Shown: piece by piece, positions 7,287 to 23,470 of the stretch | Layout of the letters: each line of letters starts with the position of its first letter | Position numbering within the stretch: position 1 is the first letter of the stretch | DNA from: Chytriomyces cf. hyalinus JEL632 | Taxonomy: Eukaryota; Chytridiomycota; Chytridiomycetes; Chytridiales; Chytriomycetaceae | Direction: 5' to 3' | NCBI GenBank assembly: GCA_025435555.1 | Contig: JAIWWG010000002.1 | Location: 682,001 to 746,000 of the forward strand | DNA length: 64,000 nt | The notes under the pieces: model-generated | Database searches by the model: none | What the model saw: only the letters and a program-made list of their open reading frames with translations | What the model was told of the DNA's origin: nothing | Translations under genes and position numbers: made by a program

Positions 7287-10200
7287 ATGTCGCCCGGGAT
7301 TGGAAGCCAGGTTCTGCGATGGGGAAACCCCTCGAAGCGGAGTGGAAAGCGCAACGTTTCTTCTGCACCGGGCATGGGCGGGAGACGCTCCGACACGGCA
7401 GACACTCTGCCTAGCCCAGTTGCGGACAACACATCACCCGTGCTGATGGGATCCGTACTAGCTCTTATCCATCCATCAACCCAGTCCGCATTCAGGGCCC
7501 TGCTTTTGCGTGTGGATTCTGTCCACGACATTGACAGAGCCGCTCTCGCCATTCTATCAGCCGCCGAAAACTCGGGCCAAAACACCGTCCCTGCGCCACC
7601 CTCGCAATCGAGCACACGCTCAACCAACTCCACATTATTCAGGTCGGGATCGTTGTACTCGAAGCGGAAGACGGACTTGAGGGATCAAAATCGCCCACGA
7701 TCAAGCTTGACCTTTGCCGCTGCAAAACGAATCGAGGCTGCTGCGTTGGGCCATCTCTCATTCGCTGCAATTGCTGGTGACCTATCTATTGCCAAAAACC
7801 GGAGTAAATGGTTATGATGACTAACTCCGATTTTGCGACGGACTGTGCAGGCCACGCCGTTGTTGTCTTTGTGCCAATCCTTGATGCCAGACAGCGCGAT
7901 GCTGATGAAAGTTTGGAGGAATCTTCCCTGCAAGATCCGTGGTATCTCCACTTGGATCAAGTGTCCAGAATCTTTGACGAAACAGAAATCAACAGCCCAT
8001 GTCAACTCAGCTTTCTCACCAGTTTCGTAGCCATTTTGTATTGCCTCACGCTTCTTTTTCCTGATACTTATCATCCCTTTGCACGAACGATTAAAAACGA
8101 AACAGCAACTCGGGATGAGTACAAATTCCAATGCACTTCATCAACCACATACTCTCGGTGGATTGACGTCCTTGACGAATGCTTTGATGAATGCCATCCA
8201 TACGAGAGCCTGAATCAGCATTATCTTATGCAAGGAAAGCGTGCGAGCTACATTTCGTCGTCTCACGCAACGTACAATAATATCCCATCTTCTCCGACAA
8301 TCTATCTGACGGATCGCTCGAAATCTGGAGAGTCATCTGGTTCTGGAGGAGGGGGCGCGGCGTGGAGCTCTCGCTCGGATACTGCCAAGAAGGTGTCCTC
8401 TCTGACAGATGATGTGAATGGTTACTGGAGCAGTGGGGGTCGCGGTACGAGTGACGCTTCTAGCGGAACTCGGAGGGGCAGAGATCAAGAAGCATTTTCT
8501 CTGAGGCGAGCGAGTACGAAGAGTCCATTGAGCTCCACAACCTTTAGTCAGATAGACTCAATTTTGGAGACGGAGAGAGTGAAATCAATTGACAGCAGTG
8601 AAAGGGGGCGCTCTTCTTCATCAGCCACTCATGGAGATATGGAGAAAAGTGTCTTTGACTCTGTTGAGACTCTGCAGTCGACGAGCCTCAAATCTGAGAA
8701 ATCTGAGGACACTTCTCTTTTCGTCGAACATGAACATTCACCAGCAAGCTCTAAAAGCCCCGTTAAAACTAAACAAAGCTCTGCAACTACTCCAGACACC
8801 AGCGGAACTTCCGGCGTGACTCGCATGGCAAGCTTTATGCAACCCAACAGTATTGTACAAACCAACGATAAACTCCCCAATGTCGATGATGCGCCCAGTG
8901 TCGACGATAAACCACTATATCTTAAGTTCCCGCAAATTTCCAAACCAGTCCTTGATTCTTCAGCATTGATCATCCCAATAACACAACCCGAACGAACTCC
9001 CCGCGCCTTAGAGGTTGTGAATCCGGCCCCTCGCGTGAGGCGAGTCGAAAAGCGTCTCTCCAACTCAAGTCTTGTATCGACGTTAGCGACTTCAGGAGAG
9101 GTCAAAAGCATGTTTTTCAACGCTGGCGGAATTTCGATTGGTAGTCTTTCTCCAGTGATTGAATTGGCGGGGAAACCACAAGATGCGCGAGAACATGGGA
9201 GCTCTACGGTGCGAGTAGAATCCAAGACAGTAGTAACGGAACGTGGGGAAGTGACGCTGACTCAGAATCAAGAAACTCGGAAGGATGAAATCGTTGCATC
9301 AAAGAATGAAGCTGGACAAATCCCAATCGCTGTGTCTGTCAGCAAGTCTGTGCAATTTACTCTCCCAGAGCAATCGGGCGTGCGAAATGCGACTCCGTCA
9401 CAATCCGTTAAGTCCGATCAAGCGAACGCGACAGCTATGAACGATTCACAAAAGCAACACGTCTCTAGTCCTGTGGATTATGCGCAAACTCAAGAGCTGC
9501 AAATGTCGCCTACTTCTTCCGAGCGAACAAGCGAATCACCTTCTCATATCATCAAATCGCCCAATCGGCTGGTCTCTGCTTCACTACGAAATTCACGCAG
9601 ATCTTCTTTCGTGTCTAGTTTACGAGAAACTACTGAGCGGATTTTAAGAGAAACGGGTGTCGGTGTGTCAGGCGATTCCCGCACTTTTGACACCGTAAAG
9701 GCCGATACGTCTAGCACGAGTCCAAAGACGATACTTTTGAATCAGTTGAAGATCGCCATGGACTCTGCAGCTGCTGTGTCTCTGGCGTCTCAGCAGGGAG
9801 ATGGCAAATCCATTGTTTATAAAAATGTGGCTGATGAATCAATTGAAACGTCTCATGCCATGACGCGAGACTTGAATACCACAGTCCCGTTAGGAGCCAT
9901 TGCGGATCAACATAAGGTTTCATTGGGCTTTGTTGGATTATTATCTTGTCATTCATTTTGACTGATGGTTCTTTTCCCCGACAGCCCGATAGCGAAAAAC
10001 CCGTGAAAAAATCTGAAAAAGCCGTCATGGATAAGCATGAAGAAAAGCGCATTGAGGAACAAGCTTTTATCACGGCATTCGAAACTTCCTCTGGTTCAGT
10101 CACAACAAGCAGCCCAGAAACTGTGGTACCGGCGGTACCCTCATTCACCATGCCCGAGATAAGAGCACCAGGGATTCGAAATGATGATCGATTTATATCA

Positions 10201-10977
10201 AGTGGGGTCGGATATACTCCATGGAATTCACCCATTTCCCCAAAGTATGCATTCAATGGTGATGCAACTCCATTCGAGCAAGATTATCTGGGCGAGTTAC
10301 CCAATGTTCCCGCGTATTCATGTTCCAAGCCGCCATCTCCTATTCCATCTGATAGTCTCTTTGATAGCAGTGGTGAGACAGAGACTTCCGGACCCCCGCG
10401 AGAAATCGCATCATCTGAAACATTGGTCATGCATGAGCAAAGCGCGCGTGCAAACGATACCGACTCTTCAAATACCTTGCAACCTCAAGGAAACCATTCT
10501 GCGATGGTTGCTGTTCCGGTTGCGAATATGGATCAATTGAGCATTCCACAAAAACCGGTCGACATCACTGTTGAGCGGACAACTTCAATGCCCTGGATTC
10601 CTGACACATTCAAAGTTCTCGACTCGCCGATCCAAGACCTGCTTGATGAGCTTGCGAAAGAAGAATGGACAGACGTTTACGATGACGTGCTTATGCTGCC
10701 AGAAGTGGCAGCTCAAGATATTGGTGGAGAGTCCGAGTCGTTTTTAACACCGAAAGATGAACCGTTGGTAGTGCAGGTGCCCAGAAACATCGAGCAGATA
10801 CCTATAAAGGATCTTGCCAAACAAAACCTTCACATCAGTTCCGAAAGCTTTGTCACGCTGAAGGATGAGCTCATGGCAGCAGAGAGGATATCAGCGCAGG
10901 AACCGGACTCTCCGATGGAGCCTGTTGTCATTGCCAAGTATGTTTTTAGTGCGCGGTCCTCGTCGCTTCCCAAGTGA
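7287..10977 (+). CDS. large disordered protein with possible PH domain
   Basis: Three exons (7287-7803, 7851-9916, 9985-10977) make a 1191-residue protein; both introns have clean GT-AG ends and matching phases. Residues about 140-300 look like a pleckstrin-homology fold: a strand-rich stretch (GHLSFAAIAGDLSI, then AVVVFVPILD, DPWYLHLDQVSRIFDE) ending with YKFQCTSSTTYSRWIDVLDE, the usual C-terminal helix with Trp. The rest is Ser/Thr/Pro-rich and low in complexity, with acidic patches near the C-terminus. A hydrophobic run inside the candidate domain (near 8020-8070) may be an unrecognised 90-bp intron instead. A membrane-phosphoinositide or signalling scaffold role would fit, but the family is not identified. 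Confidence 0.65.
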
Positions 10978-11163: not shown

Positions 11164-14100
11164 ATGCCAGGTCACCCAGGTCTGACAGGGCCCATCGTCC
11201 TCGGTGATCAGTTGTGCTGGCAACCCAGCAGCACATTGCAGGGGGTTATTCTTGGCCCTTGTAATGCGACGGATACAAACCAGGAATGGGCGCTGCTCCC
11301 ACGATCACTCAGCCGGCGCGATCCATCTCCTCCAGCTTACCAGATTTCCAATTTGGGACGCGATCTCTGCGTTCATGTGTCGAATAATACAGCGTCGTGG
11401 ATTCGTGTGAGTATCTTTTTATTTTATTATGTGATGACTAATCTTGGTGGTCGACAGCTTCTTCCGTGCAACGAAGCAGACAGTGCTCAGCTTTTTGATG
11501 CATTGGATGGTAGCGTTGTATCACGCACGACTGGGACCTGTCTGGAATCTTTCGGAAATAATACCCTTTCGAGGTGCGGACTCTGTGCAGTGCGGGTGTT
11601 TGAAGGCAGCTAACAGAAAACTGTTTTGAAATCAAAAAAGAGATTGCGAGCCCAAAAAGCAGGCATCCCTTCGCTCAAGAGATAGTAGCGACGCGGCTGC
11701 AGCTGGAAGCATTGTTGCCATGAATGGAATGTGCTGGACGCGCAAATCAGATTTCAGCGTGATTTGTTTACCATGTAACGCTACATCCAGTGCTCAGCAG
11801 TTTTCGTTTGTGGCGACTGGAACGAATGTTGTGATTCAGTCGGAGGATAAGCGGACGTGTCTGGAGATTGACAGTTCTGAAGTGTTGGTGCGTGCGTCCT
11901 TATTTTCGTTCGATGTTGGATGTTTTTGGTAATTCTGAAGGGGCTTCCAGATGAAGCCATGCTATAATACTTCCGTGCCGCTCAAGAAGCAGCGATTCTC
12001 AGTGTTCCAGGAGAAAGGGGTCGGCATGGTCACCATTGCCAGCGCTGACTCGGGCCTGTGTCTGGATGTCGAAACGTCCTCAACTTTGGCCCCAGGGCAA
12101 TTGAAGCAATGGTAGAAATCATTTCTTTCGGTTTGGCTCCGTGTTGGTGCTTATCAGGCTCTTTGATGGTGAAAACAGGCTGTGCAACAATCACGTCACC
12201 CAAGTATTTACTCTGCCGCACGGTTTTCCAACACCTGAAAAGATCACTTCTTTAAAAAGTGCATCCCACCTGTCCTCATCATCTCACGTTCCATCGGCGA
12301 CATCCAAAGCATCAGTCACCACCGTTGCACAGCCGTTGACAACCCCGGCTCCAACAACAACAGCGGTACCTTCAGAGTACACCTTAATTCAAGCCGCAGG
12401 GTCCAATGGCGTTAACTGCTGGGAGGTTAGCGCGAAATTCGCAGTGGTAACTGCATCGTGCGATCATTCGAACGGGTCGCAGTGGTGGAAGTCTTCGTTT
12501 GGCCAATTAATCCACACCAACGCATCTGGAAACCCAACGTGCGTTCAAGCTTCCAAGTCGGAGGCTGGAGGTCAACTCATTGTTGCGTGTGCATGACTCC
12601 GCTTGTTTGTTTTGACAGTTCTATTGATGGCTCATGAGTTTTTTTGTTTCAGGTGGCAAACTGCAGCGCTTCCATTGGTCAGGCATTCTTGTTTGATCCC
12701 GTGGCCAACCGAATCCGTGTTGCGGCGACAATGAACTGCGTGGCAGTGAGCGTAAACAAGACGCTGGTTGTCGAGTACGCCTTTTTGCTTTGCTTAAACA
12801 CCACACATCGGCTTATTATTTGATTTGCCAGACTGTGCGTTAATGGCACTGCTGCCGATTCAAGGAGTCAAACATTTACATTCACAAACAACTCGGTCAT
12901 CTTCCCACCACCAAGCAGCAACGGCGTGTGCGCTTCGTTCAAGTACAGAAAGGAATGGCGGGATCTGACACTGGTGGAAAGGAAGGCCTACATAGCGGCT
13001 GTCGAAGGAATACGCCGCTTACCGTCAGCTGTCGGCCATCGCAGCTACTTTGATGACCTTGTGGCAGTGCATGCAACTTTGCTGGACTATTTCCACGGAA
13101 ATGTGAGAACTTGTTTAGCTGTTGCTACTTCTTTTCGGCCGTCTGAGATTCTTGTTTTCCGAAACCCCAACCAGCCAAGTTTCTGGCCATGGCATCGAAA
13201 ACTCACTCTCATGTATGAAGAAGCTCTTCAAAAAGTCGACGCATCCGTCACGCTGCCGTACTGGGATTGGGGGTACGATGGCGACTATCCTTTAGACAAT
13301 ACAGACATATTCGGATCCGGGCCCCTTCAATTCGGAACACGAGGAGATCCCAAGGCACCGTACCCCAGCTGCTTGCACGACGGCTTTGCAAAGTCGTGGA
13401 CATCCATGTTTGGTCAATGCACGTCTCGAAACTACAGCTTGGACGTGGTGATCTACGACGACTCGCACATGATGCCTCTTATTCTGTCCAGTAAGACGTT
13501 TGATGTGTTCTCCAAGGCGGCAGAGTATGCGCACAATGTGGCGCACTTTTTCATTGGTGGGACTCAAGGCGACATGTATTATTTGGAGTTTTCCATCAAC
13601 GATCCTTTGTTCTTCATGATTCACGGGAATGTGGGTGGGTAGTCTGCATAGCTGTGCGTATGTGTGAATCATCACTAAAGGTTTCAGTTGGGTTTTAGAT
13701 CGGTACTGGGATCTGTGGCAGAAACACCACCCAAAGCAAGCGAACACCTATGTTGGAACTCAGAGTCTGCCGCCAAACTCCAAAAACCGAGCAAATGTGC
13801 AGTTATCGGACATTATGCCTGGCTTCAATGTCCCCGTTTCAAGTACAATGTCGGCTGACGGCGGAAACGGCTATTGCGTCAAATATACCCCGTATTCGAA
13901 ATCAAAGGAGGCGATCGCTGCATCGTTGGTTGAAGGGCAAGAGAAGATAACGGTCACTTCTTCGAGTCGGTCACGGTCCCACCGCAAATTCGAGAAGCGG
14001 CAAAGTTACAAGTCTCCTCCATCTCTGCCTGAAAACTGGAACATGGCAAACGCAATGAGGCTCGATGGAGTTGTCGATCACACAGCACGAGCAAACATGA

Positions 14101-14246
14101 TGCAGCGAATGAAGGAGGGCAAGTTGGAGTTGTTACGGCTTGCGGCAGATTTCAAAGCAATGGTTTCGAAGGTGACAGATGCGCGAGACGCGTCCGAGGC
14201 GCGGTTGTCGGTGATCCGCTCACTTGTTGCGGTTGTTGAACAATAG
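11164..14246 (+). CDS. lectin-tyrosinase fusion protein, copy 1
   Basis: Nine exons: 11164-11406, 11458-11573, 11641-11887, 11951-12111, 12179-12581, 12653-12774, 12832-13102, 13175-13634 and 13699-14246 (856 residues). Residues about 1-250 form ricin-type beta-trefoil repeats (CW, LLPCNEADSAQLF, CLEI, LCLDVETS, LKQWLCNN). A Ser/Thr/Pro linker and a second, shorter Cys/Trp lectin-like unit follow. From about residue 430 comes a tyrosinase domain. Its CuA region is HATLLDYFHGN then FWPWHR; its CuB region is AHNVAHFFIGG then NDPLFFMIHGNVDRYW. Tyrosinases oxidise phenols to quinones for melanin or wall cross-linking. Two oddities: no signal peptide is seen, and the usual HH pair of CuB reads IH. 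Exons 4, 6 and 8 have exactly the lengths of copy 2 (161, 122 and 460), which confirms the model. Confidence 0.85.
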
Positions 14247-14401
14247 ACGCGTAAAAGTAAAATAAATTGTTTGAAATTAAATTGGCGGGGCCTTTTGACA
14301 GCAAAACAATTTTGCAAAGCAACGACCTCCGCATTTGCCACCGAATGAAAGCTCGCACTTCACGTCGACGGACCTCGTTCACGTTGTTTCTGTCCGTGTG
14401 C

Positions 14402-17400
14402 ATGTCTGATCTGAAAGCGCCGTGGGCTGTGCTGCTCTTGGCCCTTGCCCTGCAGTCTTCAGCCGCCAATGTGGGGACACTATGCGTTGGATCCAATCTA
14501 TGCTGGCAATCAAACCATGGGCACGCGTTTATTTCAGTTCGGCCGTGTAACAAGTCTGACACGGAGCAGATGTGGTCGTTGGTCAGCTCGAAACGAATTA
14601 CCCGCGTTTCAACGTCTTCCAGGCTCGATTACAGGATCGAATCTCTATCGCATGAATCTTGCGTGACCATTGTGGAAGGGAGCGACGCTGAAACGGGAGT
14701 TTCGGTCAGTGTGAATGCTTGAGTAGCTCGAAATGCGAGTTAGCTGAGGAAATCATGCAAAAAAACAACGACAGATGCTTCCATGCTTGGATACGGAATC
14801 CAGGCAGCTGTTTGACTTATTTGACGGTCAGATTTCTTCACGTGTCTCTGGGAAATGCTTGATGGAGTCTTCTGGGCAGGGACGGCTGATTGAAAGGTGT
14901 CTACGATTTCAATGCAACCTTGTTTATAAAACTAACGCGTTCCTTTACCCCCGCAGTGTATGCCGCACGCAACACGAACCCGTGATAAAACGAGACGACA
15001 GCGTCAACGGCTTTTCTGGCGCGATCAAAGCCTCCAACGGCCAATGCCTGACTCGGCAAGCGGATTCCACAATCACGAGCACCGAATGCTCATCCAGCGA
15101 CTCTCAAAAGTTTGTGATTATTCCCTTTGGAGCAAATGTATTTGTAAAGTCTCCAGACTACGACTGGTGTCTTGAGATTTCTGGGTCTGACGTTGTGGTT
15201 CGTGGTTGGTTGTTGCTTGATTATGTTTATGCTGAGAATGAATGCCCTCTGTTTAGATGAATGAGTGCTCCGGGGATCCCGTCTCGGCCAAAAGTCAGCA
15301 GTTTACGACCGCAAATCGAAAAGACGACTTGACAGTGTCGCTCCAGAACGCGCATTCGGGGTTATGTCTCGACATTTTGGCGGATGACATTGAATCACAA
15401 GGTCGTTTGAAGCAATGGTAGAATCGTTCGGGCAACCAGGATACAAACAATGTACTGACTCTGGTTCTTGACAGGCTATGCAATGATCATGCCACGCAGT
15501 TGTTTACGCTTGCCGGTGAAATCATGGTGTGGACAACTTCAACATCCACATCCACAACCACTTCCACCAAAACAACTACAACTAGCAGCACTACATCCAA
15601 AACAACATCAACAAGCTCAACTACCAGCAAAACCACAACCTCCTCCACCAGCACAAGAACCACAACAACAAGTACAAAAACAACAACAACTAGCCTAACA
15701 TCGACCACCTCAACTTCAACAACATCCACAACGCAAAGTACCACAACAACAACAACTACATTTTCTCCAACATCAACAGCCGTGATGCCTGTGGATAAAA
15801 TGCTCATTCAATCCGATGTACTCATGTTTGGCACGTACCGGGCGTGCTGGGAAGTTGGCTCCCAAAAGAATGTGTTTGCCGCAATCTGCGACCAGTCAAA
15901 CTATAACCAGTGGTGGAGTCTATCCTTTGCGCAGCTCGTTCATGCAGATTCGTCGGGGACGTTGACTTGCGCTGGTGCGTCAAAGTCGAACCTTGGAGCG
16001 CCAATCACAGTTGAGTTTGTTGGTTAAAATTCCAGCTACGATGGTTTATCTAACCTTACACTTGCCAAGGTCACGCCTTGTGGGATAAGCACGAGCCAAT
16101 CCTTCTTCTTTCACCCAAGCAGCAAAAAGATTCGCGTGGCGCAGACTTACAACTGCGTGTCCATCAATACCAACAATTCCATTGTAATTGAGTACGTTGT
16201 GTTCGCTTTTTTGACATGTCCATAAGAGCTGACTTTGTTTGCGGGGTTAGCACTTGTTCCGATTCAACGGAATCAAACCAGACATTTATTGCGAGCAATC
16301 CATTGCTCATGTTCCCTCCTCCAATCAAGAGCGGGTGTTCCTCATACATTGAGCGAAAAGAATGGCGCGATTTGAAAATGGAGGAACGCCAAGCCTTTGT
16401 TTCTGCACTTCAAGGTGTCCGGAAGCTTCCTTCGACAGCCGGACGCCGAAGCTACTTTGACGACCTTGTTGCAGTTCATGCCACTTTGCTGGATTTTATC
16501 CACGGAAATGTGAGATGTTTTTTTTTTTTGGGAACTACAGGCCGCACGAAATCTCACGCAGTTATCTGACTTTCGAACAAAAAAACGAAGCCAAGTTTCT
16601 GGCCGTGGCACCGTCACTACATGCAACTCTTTGAGGATGCATTGCAGAAAGTCGATGCCTCTGTTACCCTGCCATACTGGGACTGGGGATTCGATGGAAG
16701 TGCGCCGTTAAAGAACACGGACATTTTCGGGCCGGGCGACACCCAGTTTGGCACCCGAGGCGACTCTACGAAATCGTACCCAACATGCCTGAAAGACGGC
16801 CTGGCCAAGTCATGGACATCCATGTTTAACCAGTGTGCATCACGCAACTACAGCCTGGACACGGTTGTTTATGACGACGGCTACATGATGCCGCTGGTTC
16901 TGAAAACGAGCGACTTTGAGTCCTTTGCAAAAGCGGCTGAGGCTGCTCATAATGTTATTCACTTTTATATTGGCGGTGCCCAAGGCGACCTTTATTTTAT
17001 TGATCTGTCCACGAACGATCCGCTCTTTTTCATTCATCACGCAAACGTTGGTATGTTGCTCTTCTCCTTGTTTCTCTTCTGGAGCCTCAAGCTGAGAGTA
17101 ACCTTGCTTTTTAGATCGCTACTGGAATCTCTGGCAAAAGCACCACCCAAACTCGGCTAATTCGTACAGCGGAAGCGTCATGCTTCCGCCGGGCTCACAG
17201 AACCGCGCGAGCCTTCAACTGACGGACATTATGCCGGGCTTCAACGTGCCTGCGTCAACAGCCATGTTTTCCGACGCTGGGAACGGCTACTGCATTAAAT
17301 ACATTCCTTACTCACAGTCACAACAGTCCATCGCCGCGTCCGATATGCCCCCACTATTCTACCCAACCTCAACCGTTACAACGACGGGTTCTGTGGTACC

Positions 17401-17710
17401 TACACCCGGACAAGTTTCACCCAAGAGACGAAGCAAAGACGCTGTGCCTCCTATTCCTGATGACTGGGAAATGTTCAGCAGTTTCCGGAGTGGAGAGGGA
17501 TACTTGTACTCGGATGTGGGCATGATGGCCATGAAAGAGGCAATGGTGAGGAGGATTCATGAAGGAGAGATGGAGTTGGTGCGGGTAGCAGCTGACTTTG
17601 ATGCTCTGCTGGCCCTCGCGGGAGACAGCGGGGGTATTCAGGCACGGGTGGATGCCATCCGAGGTCTGATAGCAGAGCTTCATGCAACGGCTCCGCCATT
17701 GCTCGAATGA
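14402..17710 (+). CDS. lectin-tyrosinase fusion protein, copy 2, secreted
   Basis: Nine exons: 14402-14704, 14775-14896, 14957-15197, 15257-15417, 15475-16009, 16070-16191, 16251-16509, 16591-17050 and 17115-17710 (932 residues). An upstream in-frame ATG at 14345 would add 19. After the 14402 start there is a signal peptide (WAVLLLALALQSSAA), so the product should be exported. Ricin-like lectin repeats follow, then a long Thr/Ser linker, a second lectin-like unit (CWEVGSQKN...YNQWW), and a tyrosinase domain with all expected copper motifs: HATLLDFIHGN, FWPWHRH, AHNVIHFYIGG and NDPLFFIHHANVDRYW. The gene lies 155 bp after copy 1 with the same intron positions and phases, so the pair arose by tandem duplication. 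The lectin part probably anchors the oxidase to wall glycans; that is inference. Confidence 0.9.
15531..15770 (+). repeat. ACA/ACC/TCA codon repeat coding a Thr/Ser linker
   Basis: About 240 bp of near-pure aca, acc, act, tcc and aaa codons inside exon 5 of lectin-tyrosinase copy 2. It codes for runs such as TTTSTKTTTTSSTTSKTTS. In copy 1 the matching linker is shorter and less repetitive. Such a tract grows by slippage and would be a heavily O-mannosylated stalk between the lectin and tyrosinase parts. Confidence 0.85.
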
Positions 17711-17810: not shown

Positions 17811-20309
17811 ATGTCTCAATCCGCAAGACTGTCGGCACTGCAGGAGAACGTGGAGAGATCCAACCGCAACATCGACTGGCCTCAGGTCAACGACCGCCAC
17901 ATGTACCCATCCGAGGTGTTTGGGCAGGACGTGTTTGACCGCAAGACCATGGCAGGCACCCTGCCCAAGCCCGTCTTCCAGGCTTTCAGCAAGCAAGTCC
18001 AGGTGTGTGTTCTTTCCTCCCTCTTTCCCGCGTATCTTCCCCGTCCCGTTCTCACTCTTAGTCTCACGGCTCTCCCCCTGTTCGTGCTTGAAAAAAACTC
18101 GGAACTAATCTCTTGTCACAGGGTCACCGCCAGCTGGACCGCCCAACCGCAGATGCTGTCGCCCACGCCGTCCGAATCTGGGCCATGAACAAGTTCGCTT
18201 TTTTCCTTTCCGATGCGCGATTTTTATCGCATCTGACCCTGTTCCATTCACCAATTCCAGGGGTGCGACCCACTTTACGCACTGGTTCCAACCCCAGACC
18301 GGAACCACCGCTGAGAAGCACGACTCGTTCCTGACTCTCAAGAGCCAGATTATCGACGGCCAGGAGGAGATTTACGCCATCGATGCATTCTCTGGTGGCC
18401 AGCTGCTCCAGTCCGAGCCAGATGCATCTTCTTTCCCCAACGGCGGTATCCGAAGCACCTTCGAGGCCCGTGGTTACACCATCTGGGACCCAGTCAGGTA
18501 CTCAAACCATCCCAATGTTATATTTCAAACTTCACTTTTTCTGAAAAATTAATTTTCGAAACCAGTCCCATGTTCCTTCGTCGTGGTCCTCACGGCACGG
18601 CTGTGCTCTATATCCCTTCCGTCTTCATCTCCTACAACGGTGAAGCCCTCGACGAGAAGACGATTCTTCTTCGTTCCAGCGAGGTTATTTCCAAGGCGAC
18701 TGTCGGCCTTCTTCGCGCGCTTGGAGACAATGAGACTCAGCGTGTCACCACCACTCTGGGATGCGAGCAGGAGTTTTTCCTTATTGACCGTGCCTTGTAC
18801 AACCTCCGCCCAGACTTGAAGATTGCTGGTCGTACTCTGATTGGAGTCCCACCACCAAAGCACCAGCAACTCGAGGACCACTACTTTGGTCAAATCCCAT
18901 CGCGTGTCTTGGCTTGTATTGCTGAGGCTGAGTATGAGCTTGCTCGTATCGGAGTCCCCGTCAAGACCCGTCACAATGAAGTTGCGCCCAACCAGTTCGA
19001 AATTGCCCCAATCTTTGAAGAAGCTTCGATTGCTGTTGACCACAACTTGGCCACCATGGAAGTTTTGCACCAGGTTGCTCACCGTCACAAGCTGAAGGTT
19101 CTGTTCCACGAGAAGCCATTCAAGGGAGTCAACGGAAGCGGAAAGCACGCCAACTGGGCCCTTCAGACTGACAGCGGAGACAACTTGCTGGATCCTACCT
19201 CTACTCCAGAAACCAACTACCGCTTCTTGCTCGTTTTGGTGGCTATTCTCGATGCCATGTACAAGCACGGTGATCTCCTCCGGGCTTCGATTGCATCTGC
19301 TTCTAACGAGCACCGTCTTGGAGCCAACGAAGCACCACCTGCAATTGTGTCTGCTTTCTTGGGTGACCACCTCTCTGAAGTTCTCAACTCTATTGAAGAG
19401 AAACGCCCAGTCGCTGACTTTTCTCAGCCCCACTTGCAAGGAGTGTCTGTTGGAGGCACCACTTTGGATCTTAAGATTTCTTCAATGCCACCCATTGCTC
19501 GTGACTTGACTGACCGTAACCGTACTTCTCCATTTGCGTTCACTGGAAACAAGTTTGAGTTCCGCGCCGTTGGTTCCAAGCAATCTCCATCGTTCCCCGT
19601 CGTTCTTCTCAACGCTGCTGTTGCCAAGTCTCTCCAGCTGGTTACTGAGGCAGTCAAGAAGGCCCAGGGCAAAAAGGCAGCACCTTCTACCGAAGATTTG
19701 CTGAGCGTCATTCGCACATTTGCTGCGTCGTCAAAGAAGGTCCGCTTCGAAGGAAATGGATACTCTGATGAATGGGTTGTCGAGGCTGAGAAGCGTGGTC
19801 TCCCAAACATCAAGTCCTGCCCTGCTGCTTTCAAGCGCTTGTTGTTGGACCACAACAAGCAGCTCCTGACTTCCCTTGGAATCTTGTCTGCTGCTGAACT
19901 GACGTCCCGTTACCACATTCTCCTCGAAAAGTACGCGAAGGATCTGCTCATTGAGGCCAACACTCTGCGTTCGCTGATTGTGAATGGAGTTTTGCCAGCG
20001 GCGTTCACGTACCGCAAGGAGCTTGCGGACTCGATCAACTCTCAAAAGAGCGCTGGAGTGGATGCTATTCCAGAAAAGAAGCTCTTGAACACGTTGACCA
20101 AGGGATCCATTGCGCTTCAGGAGTCTTCGACCAGTCTGGAAGCGCTGATCAGCAAGATTGAATCTCTTGACGAGGAGTCGCAGGGTGAGACTGCCGGAAA
20201 GGAGCTGACTGTTGCGATGGAAGACGTCCGAGAGAAGTCAGATGCTCTCGAGAAGCAGATTGCAGACAAGTACTGGCCTTACCCCAAGTACACTGAGCTC
20301 CTCCTCTGA
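17811..20309 (+). CDS. glutamine synthetase type III, copy A
   Basis: Four exons (17811-18002, 18122-18192, 18261-18497, 18566-20309) code for 747 residues, the normal length of GSIII (about 700-750) and twice that of GSII. Signatures include [88 protein letters not shown] and the C-terminal [19 protein letters not shown] makes glutamine from glutamate, ammonia and ATP in the central route of ammonia assimilation. Unlike copy B it has no intron between the codons for GQEE and the following YAID stretch. The gene starts 100 bp after the tyrosinase stop; that gap contains one TGATAA site at about 17753. Confidence 0.95.
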
Positions 20310-20883
20310 GCGGGAAGCCGTCGTCTGTTCAGATGTCAAATTTCGTTGTTGATTTATTTCCTAACTTTTTATAATGCCAGGGATGTTTTGAGTTTGGACA
20401 AAAAAAAAGGATTTCTCTTTTGATTTATGTTTTGTGAGACAAGGATGCCAGATAGGATTCGCAGCAGATTTAGTAATGCGATAAGATTATCTGTGGTGAC
20501 ACGCCCTGGCTTGCGCGTTTTGTTTTAAGGATCGTGCTTGCATCGAGCTCATGCTGTGCGTGTGTCTGAGGATGCTACCAGCCGCGTATCCAGAGACGCC
20601 CGACACGCTTACAGATATCCCGCCTGGTATGCATGGACATGGATGCAGCTCTTGTCGCTGCTGTTATCGATACCAGTCCCATGTGACAGCCACTTGATAG
20701 ATAAAATGAACGGCTTGTGGGGAAGGAATCTTTTTGTCTTGTCTCCGGCATAGATAAAATCTGGCGAGATATGACCCGACATTTCCCGCGACACAGGGCA
20801 CAAAAAAAGTATAAAAGGCCGATATTTGTCACCGGTAAATGCGTGCAAAGAAAAAGACAACAAAACCAACTCCATCTCACACA
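20310..20883. promoter_or_regulatory. promoter region of GSIII copy B with several GATA-factor sites
   Basis: This 574-bp gap between the two GSIII genes holds at least five HGATAR-type sequences: GATAAG at 20480-20485, TTATCT at 20487-20492, TTATCG near 20664, AGATAA at 20699-20704 and AGATAA at 20752-20757. Fungal nitrogen regulators of the AreA/Nit2 family bind such sites and need two or more nearby. The clustering in front of a glutamine synthetase gene suggests nitrogen control. No binding data can be read from sequence, and AT-rich DNA gives such sites by chance. The first part of the gap is the 3' flank of copy A. Confidence 0.5.
20810..20817 (+). promoter_or_regulatory. TATA box of GSIII copy B
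   Basis: A perfect TATAAAAG lies 67 bp upstream of the ATG at 20884, in the arrangement expected for a strongly expressed or regulated fungal gene with a short 5' leader. Confidence 0.6.
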
Positions 20884-23470
20884 ATGTCCCAATCTGCAAG
20901 ACTGTCAGCTCTCCAGGAGAACGTGGACCGCTCCACGCGCCACATTGACTGGCCCACCGTCGGCGACAGGCACCAGTACCCGTCGGAAATCTTCAACGCC
21001 GACGTGTTTGATCGTCGGACTATGGCATCCACCCTGCCCAAACCCATCTACCAGGCATTCACGAAGCAAATGCAGGTGCGTTAAATGTGTCTTGTGCTTC
21101 TTTCTGCATCGGATGTCTTTTTTGCTCGCTGGGAGACAAGCAGTGCTTATCTGGAACACGAAATCTTATCTTTTTTAAATTTATTTACACAGGGTCACAA
21201 CAAGTTGGACCGCTCCACGGCCGATGCTGTTGCTCACGCCGCGAAAGTTTGGGCCATGGACAAGTGCGTATTCGTGATTGCCCTTTGGCCTTTTTTCAGC
21301 CACCGCTCTCCTTTCTAATAAGCTTTCTTCTTGCAGAGGTGCTACCCACTTTACCCACTGGTTCCAACCGCAGACCGGCACCACTGCCGAGAAGCACGAC
21401 TCCTTCCTCACATTGAAGTCCCAGATTGTCGATGGACAAGAAGAGGTAACGTTCAACAAATCACCTTTTTATGATGATGACGAACCCTGAAACCGCGTGA
21501 TCTCATCTCTTTTTTTTTATTATCATTTCGCCGAAAGACCTATGCTATTGATCACTTCTCTGGAGGTCAGCTGCTGCAAGCAGAGCCAGATGCGTCCTCC
21601 TTCCCCAACGGTGGAATCAGAAGCACTTTCGAAGCCCGTGGTTACACTGTCTGGGACACTCTCAGGTTGGAATTCCACTTACTCACCCACCACACGTGAC
21701 TTGTAGATCTGAAAGCATCTTCTTTTTAGCCCCATGTTCATTCGTCGCGGTCCCCACGGCACTGCCACCCTCTACATTCCCTCAGTCTTCATCTCTTACA
21801 ACGGTGAAGCCCTCGACGAGAAGACTATCCTTCTCCGATCAAACGAAGTCGTCTCCAGAGCAGCCGTCGGTCTTCTTCGTGTCCTCGGAGACACTGAGAC
21901 TCAGCGTGTCTCTACTACCTTGGGATGCGAGCAAGAGTTTTTCCTTATTGACCGCGCTGTCTACAACCTTCGTCCGGACTTGAAGATCACTGGCCGTACT
22001 TTGATTGGAGTCCCACCACCAAAGCACCAGCAGCTTGAGGACCATTACTTTGGTCAAATCCCATCGCGTGTTTTGGCTTGTATTGCCGAGGCTGAATACG
22101 AGCTTGCCCGTATCGGAGTCCCCGTCAAGACCCGCCACAACGAAGTCGCACCCAACCAGTTCGAAGTTGCCCCAATCTTCGAGGGTTCATCCATTGCTGT
22201 TGACCACAACTTGGCTACTATGGAAGTCTTGCACCAAGTTGCTCACCGTCACAAGCTGAAGGTTTTGTTCCACGAGAAGCCATTCAAGGGAGTCAACGGA
22301 AGCGGAAAGCACGCCAACTGGTCTCTCCAGACTGACGGTGGTGACAACTTGTTGGACCCAACTAGCTCTCCACAAACCAACTACCGCTTCTTGCTTGTTT
22401 TGGTCGCCATCCTTGACGCTGTGTACAAGCACGGTGACCTTCTCCGTGCCACAATCGCGTCCGCATCCAACGAGCACCGTCTCGGAGCCAACGAAGCACC
22501 ACCTGCAATTGTGTCTGCTTTCCTCGGAAGCCAACTTTCTGAAGTTCTCAACGCCATTGAGGAGAGCCGTCCAGTTGCTGAACACACTCCAACTGTGCAA
22601 GGAGTCTCTGTTGGAGGCACCACATTGGACCTCAAGATTTCTTCAATGCCACCCATTGCTCGTGACTTGACTGACCGTAACCGTACTTCTCCATTTGCGT
22701 TCACTGGAAACAAGTTTGAGTTCCGTGCCGTTGGTTCCAAGCAATCTCCATCCTTCCCAATTGTCGTGCTGAACGCTGCCGTGGCCCAATCCTTCATTGA
22801 TGTTACTGCTGCACTGAAGGCTGCTCAGGCTGACAAGGAAGCTCCATCTGAGGAGGATATTCTTTCCGTCATTCGTCAATTTGCCATCTCTTCAAAAAAG
22901 ATTCGCTTCGAAGGCAACGGATACTCTGATGAATGGATTGTTGAGGCCGAAAAGCGTGGTCTCCCCAACCTGAAGGCATGTACTGACGCCTTCAAGCGCC
23001 TGCTCGAGCCACACAACAGCAACTTGCTCACTTCTTTGGGTGTGCTCTCTCAATCCGAGTTGTCCTCCCGTTACCACATTATGGTTGAGAAGTACGCCAA
23101 AGATCTCGTGATTGAGGCCAACACTTTGTCTGCGCTCATCAACAATGGAGTCCTTCCAGCCGCGTTCAGCTACCGTAAGGAGCTTGCAGACTCTATCAAC
23201 TCTCAAGCAACTGCTGGTGTGGAAGCTGCCCCAGAAAAGAAGCTGCTGGTTGCACTCACCAAGGGATGCATGGCACTGACTGAGGCTGCCGAGAAGCTCG
23301 ACGCGTTCATTGAGAAGGTGGAGGGTCTCCACGAAGAGGAACAGGGTGAGGCAGCTGGAACTCTGCTGACATCAGCCATGGAAGAGGTGCGCTCCCACGC
23401 CGACGCACTTGAGAAGAAAGTTGCGGACAAGTACTGGCCATTCCCCAAGTACACGGAACTGCTCTTCTAA
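20884..23470 (+). CDS. glutamine synthetase type III, copy B
   Basis: Five exons: 20884-21075, 21193-21263, 21337-21445, 21538-21665 and 21730-23470, giving 746 residues. The protein is close to copy A along its whole length and keeps the same signatures ([50 protein letters not shown]). The first two introns and the last have the same positions as in copy A; intron 3 (21446-21537) is present only here. Exons 1 and 2 have identical lengths in both copies (192 and 71). A tandem duplication is evident. Divergence is concentrated near the C-terminal helical region. The promoter differs greatly: 574 bp with TATA and GATA sites here, against 100 bp for copy A, so the two may be expressed under different nitrogen states. 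Confidence 0.95.

What the first reader, a model, noticed from the sequence alone, without database searches (positions are those of the whole stretch)
11164..17710. Tandem pair of lectin-tyrosinase fusion proteins
Both genes join ricin-type beta-trefoil repeats, a Thr/Ser stalk and a second lectin-like unit to a C-terminal tyrosinase. They share nine exons with matching phases; three exons have identical lengths. Tyrosinases are common in fungi, but I know of no described enzyme with this order. A lectin that fixes a phenol oxidase onto wall or host glycans would give local cross-linking or melanin.
Basis: partly seen in the sequence, partly recalled or inferred. Interest (0 to 1): 0.8.

Follow-up and report, generated by a model that had tools for sequence, protein, structure and literature searches.

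The report
Lectin-armed tyrosinase gene pair
Two neighbouring genes in a eukaryote (probably a zoosporic fungus) each encode a phenol-oxidising copper enzyme carrying three sugar-binding modules on the same chain, so the enzyme is probably held on sugar-coated surfaces where it would cross-link or darken material; the combination looks undescribed in the papers searched, although looser versions are known.

Summary
Two tandem nine-exon genes (11164-14246 and 14402-17710; 856 and 931 aa) share intron phases 0,2,0,2,0,2,0,1 and three equal exon lengths. Each product has THREE ricin-type beta-trefoils (two N-terminal, one after the stalk), each passing Pfam's curated cut-off alone, followed by a tyrosinase domain with all six copper-ligand histidines and a short C-terminal tail. 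The "second lectin-like unit" is a full beta-trefoil. In all six trefoils a phase-0 intron sits at the same alignment column in repeat 2 and a phase-2 intron sits just before the second cysteine of repeat 3, so the lectins arose by domain triplication before the gene duplicated. Every domain junction lies inside an exon, which argues strongly against separate mRNAs. Synonymous sites are saturated while the tyrosinase domains stay 68% identical: an old pair kept by selection. Gene 2 has a signal-peptide-like start; gene 1, as readable here, does not. Best reading: a secreted, lectin-tethered phenol oxidase. Precedents: the Agaricus PPO3-Abmb complex and chytrid CBM18-tyrosinases. A covalent R-type-lectin tyrosinase was not found in the papers searched or in 80 prokaryotic loci; eukaryotic databases could not be searched. 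Activity, sugar and location are untested.

The parts
11164..14246 (+). Gene 1 (856 aa): exons 11164-11406, 11458-11573, 11641-11887, 11951-12111, 12179-12581, 12653-12774, 12832-13102, 13175-13634, 13699-14246
   Evidence: Spliced translation open, all introns GT-AG; start codon uncertain, no signal peptide
14402..17710 (+). Gene 2 (931 aa): exons 14402-14704, 14775-14896, 14957-15194, 15257-15417, 15475-16009, 16070-16191, 16251-16509, 16591-17050, 17115-17710
   Evidence: Spliced translation open, same phases as gene 1; signal-peptide-like N-terminus MSDLKAPWAVLLLALALQSSAA
11194..11674 (+). Gene 1 beta-trefoil T1 (aa 11-131), introns included
   Evidence: Pfam Ricin_B_lectin 40.2 bits alone, cut-off 29
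11705..12227 (+). Gene 1 beta-trefoil T2 (aa 142-272), with the one canonical sugar-site repeat (T2 gamma, CLDV...KQWLC...TQVF)
   Evidence: Pfam Ricin_B_lectin 40.4 bits; residues
12228..12374 (+). Gene 1 Ser/Thr/Pro linker (aa 273-321), inside exon 5
   Evidence: Composition
12375..12904 (+). Gene 1 beta-trefoil T3 (aa 322-455); its last strands lie in exon 7 together with the start of the tyrosinase
   Evidence: Pfam Ricin_B_lectin 38.8 bits alone
13043..13724 (+). Gene 1 tyrosinase domain (aa 502-683); copper ligands H511, H519, H528, H641, H645, H671; IH instead of HH at the last ligand
   Evidence: Pfam Tyrosinase E 2.3e-29; alignment to bacterial relatives
14480..14990 (+). Gene 2 beta-trefoil T1 (aa 27-153)
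   Evidence: Pfam Ricin_B_lectin 40.2 bits alone
15018..15523 (+). Gene 2 beta-trefoil T2 (aa 163-291), with canonical sugar-site repeat T2 gamma (CLDI...KQWLC...TQLF)
   Evidence: Pfam Ricin_B_lectin 38.6 and RicinB_lectin_2 46.8 bits; residues
15524..15796 (+). Gene 2 Thr/Ser stalk (about aa 292-382), inside exon 5; 30-nt imperfect tandem repeat at 15567-15639
   Evidence: 86% S/T over 85 aa; tandem repeat
15797..16314 (+). Gene 2 beta-trefoil T3 (aa 383-515)
   Evidence: Pfam Ricin_B_lectin 34.7 bits alone
16450..17140 (+). Gene 2 tyrosinase domain (aa 561-742); copper ligands H570, H578, H587, H700, H704, H730
   Evidence: Pfam Tyrosinase E 9.2e-34; best single-domain PDB match Streptomyces tyrosinase 1wx2, E 1e-23
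13725..14246 (+). Gene 1 C-terminal tail with dibasic KR (aa 774-775)
   Evidence: No Pfam match; dibasic site; conserved with gene 2
17141..17710 (+). Gene 2 C-terminal tail with dibasic KRR (aa 837-839)
   Evidence: No Pfam match; AlphaFold model of exon 9 uninformative, pLDDT 41

Best explanation
A tandem pair of lectin-tethered type-3 copper phenol oxidases. The chain is [ricin-type beta-trefoil x2] - Ser/Thr-rich stalk - [ricin-type beta-trefoil] - tyrosinase - short tail. At least the product of gene 2 is secreted. The trefoils hold the oxidase on glycans, most likely of the cell's own wall or extracellular matrix, or of a surface it sits on. There it turns phenols or tyrosyl groups into quinones that cross-link protein or form melanin locally. 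Shown here: the domain content, gene structure, copper ligands, and homology to R-type lectins and tyrosinases. Inferred: secretion, sugar binding (probably one canonical site, T2 gamma), catalysis, activation by cleavage at the C-terminal dibasic site, and the biological role.
For: Each of the six trefoils alone passes the Ricin_B_lectin cut-off, and their profile matches solved ricin B-type lectins (best E 1.7e-15, SNA-II). All 18 repeats keep a Cys pair and 16 of 18 a QxW/QxF motif. T2 gamma of both proteins keeps the Cys-Leu-Asp, Trp and Gln pattern seen in abrin and CBM13 repeats. All six copper-ligand histidines align with bacterial tyrosinases, with Asn at HisB1+1, the position associated with monophenolase activity (PMC10526336). 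Exons 5 and 7 span the domain junctions in both genes. Synonymous sites are saturated while the tyrosinase domain is 68% identical, so both copies have been kept by selection. In A. bisporus a ricin-fold lectin subunit sits on PPO3 and agglutinates cells only in that complex (PMC7287795), a working precedent for lectin plus tyrosinase.
Against: No enzyme, glycan, expression or localisation data. Gene 1 has no recognisable signal peptide. Gene 1 has lost the conserved non-ligand His beside the last CuB ligand (IH for HH), although 4 of about 84 bacterial relatives have LH there. Eight of nine repeats per protein lack the canonical sugar-binding Asp, so sugar binding may be weak or non-classical. 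No trusted 3D model was made.
Confidence: 0.62

Rival explanations
1. Same proteins, but used outward as a defence or competition weapon: the trefoils bind glycans of bacteria, predators or a host and the oxidase makes toxic quinones on them.
For: Melanin and quinone chemistry with lectin synergy has been proposed as defence for Abmb-PPO3 (PMC7287795). In Bsal, ricin-like lectins are linked to early infection (PMC9926174).
Against: No evidence on target glycans; nothing in the neighbourhood (glutamine synthetase III genes, housekeeping genes) suggests a defence cluster.
Confidence: 0.2
2. Gene 1 is a diverged, non-secreted or non-catalytic copy that acts as a lectin or regulator, and only gene 2 is the working enzyme.
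For: No signal peptide found for gene 1; HH changed to IH and AN to GN at CuB; weak stalk.
Against: All six ligands kept; 68% identity in the tyrosinase domain under saturated synonymous divergence; all nine cysteine pairs kept; 12 N-glycosylation sequons in gene 1, odd for a cytosolic protein; LH occurs naturally in relatives.
Confidence: 0.3
3. The tyrosinase domain is a catechol oxidase or an oxygen-carrying, haemocyanin-like site and not a true tyrosinase.
For: Molluscan haemocyanins and the A. oryzae catechol oxidase (4j3p) are among the matches; the domain lacks the Cys two residues before the second CuA histidine.
Against: The best single-domain match is Streptomyces tyrosinase; HisB1+1 is Asn as in nearly all structurally known tyrosinases (PMC10526336); some true tyrosinases lack the thioether.
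Confidence: 0.2
4. Gene-model artefact: lectin and tyrosinase exons belong to separate transcripts.
For: No RNA evidence was available.
Against: Exon 7 of both genes encodes the last strands of trefoil 3 and the first two CuA histidines in one open frame; exon 5 spans trefoil 2, stalk and trefoil 3; the whole structure is conserved between two old copies.
Confidence: 0.02

Closest known systems
Agaricus bisporus tyrosinase PPO3 with its light subunit Abmb/LSMT (PDB 2y9w)
   Same: Ricin-B-like beta-trefoil associated with a tyrosinase; predicted single sugar site; the lectin agglutinates only in the complex (PMC7287795)
   Different: Two separate gene products in a non-covalent complex, one trefoil per light subunit; here three trefoils are fused on one chain, and the oxidase is much nearer to short bacterial or AoCO4-type enzymes than to PPO3 (2y9w E 0.006, 1wx2 E 1e-23)
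CBM18-tyrosinase ('TL') proteins of Batrachochytrium
   Same: Carbohydrate-binding modules fused to a tyrosinase domain in chytrid fungi (PMC3569864, PMC5364385)
   Different: The binding module is the hevein-like CBM18 (chitin), not an R-type beta-trefoil; CBM18-tyrosinases were reported absent from 'Sp' (Spizellomyces) in PMC5364385
Ricin_B_lectin / R-type lectins (CBM13; SNA-II, ebulin, ricin B chain)
   Same: Three QxW repeats with Cys pairs per trefoil; sequence profile match
   Different: Three trefoils per chain split around a stalk; only T2 gamma keeps the classical sugar-site Asp; no toxin A chain is present
Short bacterial tyrosinases (Streptomyces) and A. oryzae catechol oxidase AoCO4
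   Same: Type-3 copper domain, about 30% identity to the bacterial ones, all six ligands
   Different: No lectin modules; none of 80 prokaryotic loci carried a trefoil
Saprolegnia parasitica novel combinations using ricin or tyrosinase domains
   Same: An aquatic eukaryote that recruits ricin-type and tyrosinase domains into new composites (PMC3681718)
   Different: The text does not describe a ricin-tyrosinase fusion; its supplementary list was not readable here

Membership tests
Type-3 copper (tyrosinase) family, PF00264 | Match to the common central domain above curated cut-off | tested here: met
   103.7 and 118.1 bits against 22.6
Type-3 copper (tyrosinase) family, PF00264 | Six copper-ligand histidines | tested here: met
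   Aligned with bacterial tyrosinases in both genes
Type-3 copper (tyrosinase) family, PF00264 | Extra conserved, non-ligand His beside the third CuB ligand (common, not strictly defining) | tested here: inconclusive
   Gene 2 HH kept; gene 1 IH. Not a ligand; LH seen in 4 of about 84 bacterial relatives
True tyrosinase (monophenolase) | Asn or Asp at HisB1+1 | tested here: met
   HN in both; criterion from PMC10526336
True tyrosinase (monophenolase) | Hydroxylates monophenols | not testable with these tools
   Needs enzyme assay
Ricin-type beta-trefoil lectin, PF00652 | Three repeats with QxW-type motif, profile match per domain | tested here: met
   All six trefoils above cut-off alone; QxW/QxF in 16 of 18 repeats
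Ricin-type beta-trefoil lectin, PF00652 | Sugar-binding Asp/aromatic/Gln site | tested here: inconclusive
   Canonical pattern only in T2 gamma of each protein
Ricin-type beta-trefoil lectin, PF00652 | Beta-trefoil fold in a solved or predicted structure | not tested
   The structure tool takes unspliced window translations only; the fold is inferred from sequence profiles
CBM18-tyrosinase (chytrid TL proteins) | CBM18 hevein-like chitin-binding modules | tested here: not met
   No chitin-binding (CBM18) match in Pfam at E up to 10
Agaricus PPO3-Abmb type assembly | Separate lectin subunit bound to a tyrosinase | tested here: not met
   The lectins are fused to the enzyme in one chain

The most novel reading that the evidence does not exclude
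A lineage-specific class of covalent R-type-lectin phenol oxidases that works as a self-targeting biological glue: the trefoils bring the enzyme to glycans of a substrate surface or spore/cyst wall, and quinone cross-linking sets the attachment, with the two paralogues dividing the work (one secreted enzyme, one altered copy).
Probability: 0.12. Interest if true: 0.75.

Novelty: new variant of a known kind. Interest (0 to 1): 0.47.

Why it matters
It joins on one chain what the button mushroom does with two proteins (a ricin-fold lectin on a tyrosinase) and what chytrids do with chitin-binding modules, suggesting that tying phenol oxidases to glycans evolved more than once. The repeated intron pattern records how a three-lectin module was built by copying one two-intron domain, and gives a sequence-level marker for finding relatives. 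Lectin-targeted tyrosinases would also be useful for site-directed cross-linking.

Tried and rejected
Own-genome search: no genome held for this window. Upstream exon with a signal peptide for gene 1: 111 formal combinations, none convincing. Close relatives in prokaryotic genomes by the two-sequence profile: none; with a broader profile, 80 tyrosinases without a lectin. IMG/VR: one unrelated phage-like tyrosinase. C-terminal tails: no Pfam family; AlphaFold model of exon 9 too poor to use (pLDDT 41). dN/dS could not be estimated because synonymous sites are saturated. Placing the organism with conserved neighbours against PDB sequences gave no clear taxon. Separate-transcript idea rejected because domain junctions lie inside exons. 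The idea that gene 1 is dead because of IH was weakened by LH in natural relatives. Ten literature searches found no described ricin-tyrosinase fusion.

Full report
OBSERVATION. I rebuilt both genes from the raw sequence. Gene 1 (11164-14246) and gene 2 (14402-17710) each splice from nine exons with GT-AG introns of 51-81 nt into uninterrupted proteins of 856 and 931 aa. Intron phases are 0,2,0,2,0,2,0,1 in both, and exons 4, 6 and 8 have identical lengths (161, 122, 460). The proteins are 47% identical overall and 68% identical in the tyrosinase domain. Differences sit mostly at third codon positions (362, 264 and 540 at positions 1, 2 and 3 of 849 aligned codons), and synonymous sites are saturated. 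That is the pattern of an old duplication whose copies have both been kept by selection, and it supports the exon models, which were chosen partly by comparing the two copies.

DOMAINS. Pfam gives Ricin_B_lectin (E 7e-27 and 2e-21) and Tyrosinase (E 2e-29 and 9e-34) and no other convincing domain type (a CDtoxinA match to gene 1 at E 2.7e-09 overlaps the trefoils, and I know those domains to share the beta-trefoil fold). Tested one at a time, each of three segments in each protein passes the curated Ricin_B_lectin cut-off: T1 40.2/40.2, T2 40.4/38.6, T3 38.8/34.7 bits against 29. All nine repeats of both proteins keep a cysteine pair, and eight of nine keep a QxW/QxF motif. A profile of the six trefoils finds solved R-type lectins, best SNA-II at E 1.7e-15, then ebulin, CEL-III and ricin-type B chains. 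A stalk rich in Ser/Thr lies between T2 and T3: 86% S/T over 85 aa in gene 2, only 38% over 52 aa in gene 1.

HOW THE LECTIN PART WAS BUILT. When the six trefoils are aligned, the phase-0 intron falls on the same column in repeat 2 of every trefoil, and the phase-2 intron falls immediately before the second cysteine of repeat 3 in every trefoil. In 200,000 random placements of two introns per domain, no run gave this agreement within three residues with matching phase. So a single two-intron trefoil was probably copied into three, and the finished gene was later duplicated as a whole.

ONE TRANSCRIPT. Exon 5 contains the end of T2, the stalk and the start of T3; exon 7 contains the last strands of T3 and the first two copper-A histidines. 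Every domain junction from T2 onwards is inside an exon in both copies, so separate lectin and tyrosinase mRNAs are very unlikely. RNA evidence is still missing.

ACTIVE SITE. The six ligands align with bacterial tyrosinases: H511, 519, 528, 641, 645, 671 in gene 1 and H570, 578, 587, 700, 704, 730 in gene 2. Both have Asn after the first copper-B histidine, the 'activity controller' position that is Asn or Asp in almost all structurally known tyrosinases (PMC10526336). Neither has the Cys two residues before the second copper-A histidine; some true tyrosinases also lack that thioether (PMC10526336). Gene 1 has IH where HH is usual; I take the lost His to be the conserved extra histidine near CuB that is not a ligand but may help hold the site (PMC10526336). 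Four of about 84 bacterial relatives have LH there, so this alone does not mean a dead enzyme. By single-domain score the nearest solved enzymes are Streptomyces tyrosinases, then A. oryzae catechol oxidase and haemocyanin units; mushroom PPO3 is far weaker.

TARGETING. Gene 2 starts with a typical hydrophobic leader. Gene 1 does not, and no upstream exon gives one convincingly, yet it keeps all nine cysteine pairs and has 12 N-glycosylation sequons; its 5' end needs transcript data. Both tails carry a dibasic site followed by a short, probably helical segment (the model is too weak to rely on), which is compatible with a pro-enzyme cleaved on activation, as in other fungal tyrosinases (inference). 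Only repeat T2 gamma keeps the classical sugar-site pattern Cys-Leu-Asp...Trp...Gln in both proteins, so one main sugar site per chain is predicted.

MECHANISM. The best-supported account is a secreted oxidase held on glycans by its trefoils, producing quinones locally for cross-linking or melanin. A. bisporus Abmb, a ricin-fold lectin bound to PPO3, agglutinates cells only in that complex (PMC7287795), which shows that lectin and tyrosinase can work together. Whether the target is the cell's own wall (my preference), a solid surface, or another organism is open.

KNOWN OR NEW. Related solutions are known: the non-covalent Abmb-PPO3 complex and the covalent CBM18-tyrosinases of Batrachochytrium (PMC3569864; PMC5364385). 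A covalent R-type-lectin tyrosinase was not found in ten full-text searches or in 80 prokaryotic tyrosinase loci. Eukaryotic protein databases could not be searched, so unpublished or merely annotated relatives are quite possible. I rate it a new variant of a known kind.

CONTEXT AND LIMITS. The next genes downstream are a tandem pair of type III glutamine synthetases 83% identical to each other. No further lectin or tyrosinase genes lie in the window.

Noticed in passing
window 17811-20309 and about 20700-23467: Tandem pair of type III glutamine synthetase genes, 83% identical over 581 aa, directly downstream; the GSIII type could help place the organism.
   Followed up: partly
L001 3569-5080: A tyrosinase gene in an IMG/VR viral contig (IMGVR_UViG_3300044614_002230), between what look like phage structural genes; a tyrosinase carried by a phage would be unusual.
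   Followed up: partly
L005 3851-7024, L006 3965-6985, L012 3890-7156: Bacterial proteins of about 1000 aa that join a tyrosinase domain to a von Willebrand factor A domain, in Pseudomonadota, Mesorhizobium and Pseudonocardia.
   Followed up: partly
window 7808-10977: Long open frames (717 and 353 aa) just upstream of gene 1 with no Pfam match.
   Followed up: partly
window 14897-14956: Intron 2 of gene 2 is 60 nt, a multiple of three and free of stops, so its retention would only insert 20 residues into trefoil 1.
   Followed up: no
window 11164-11205: Gene 1 keeps all disulfide cysteines but has no recognisable signal peptide; its true 5' end may be missed or lost.
   Followed up: partly
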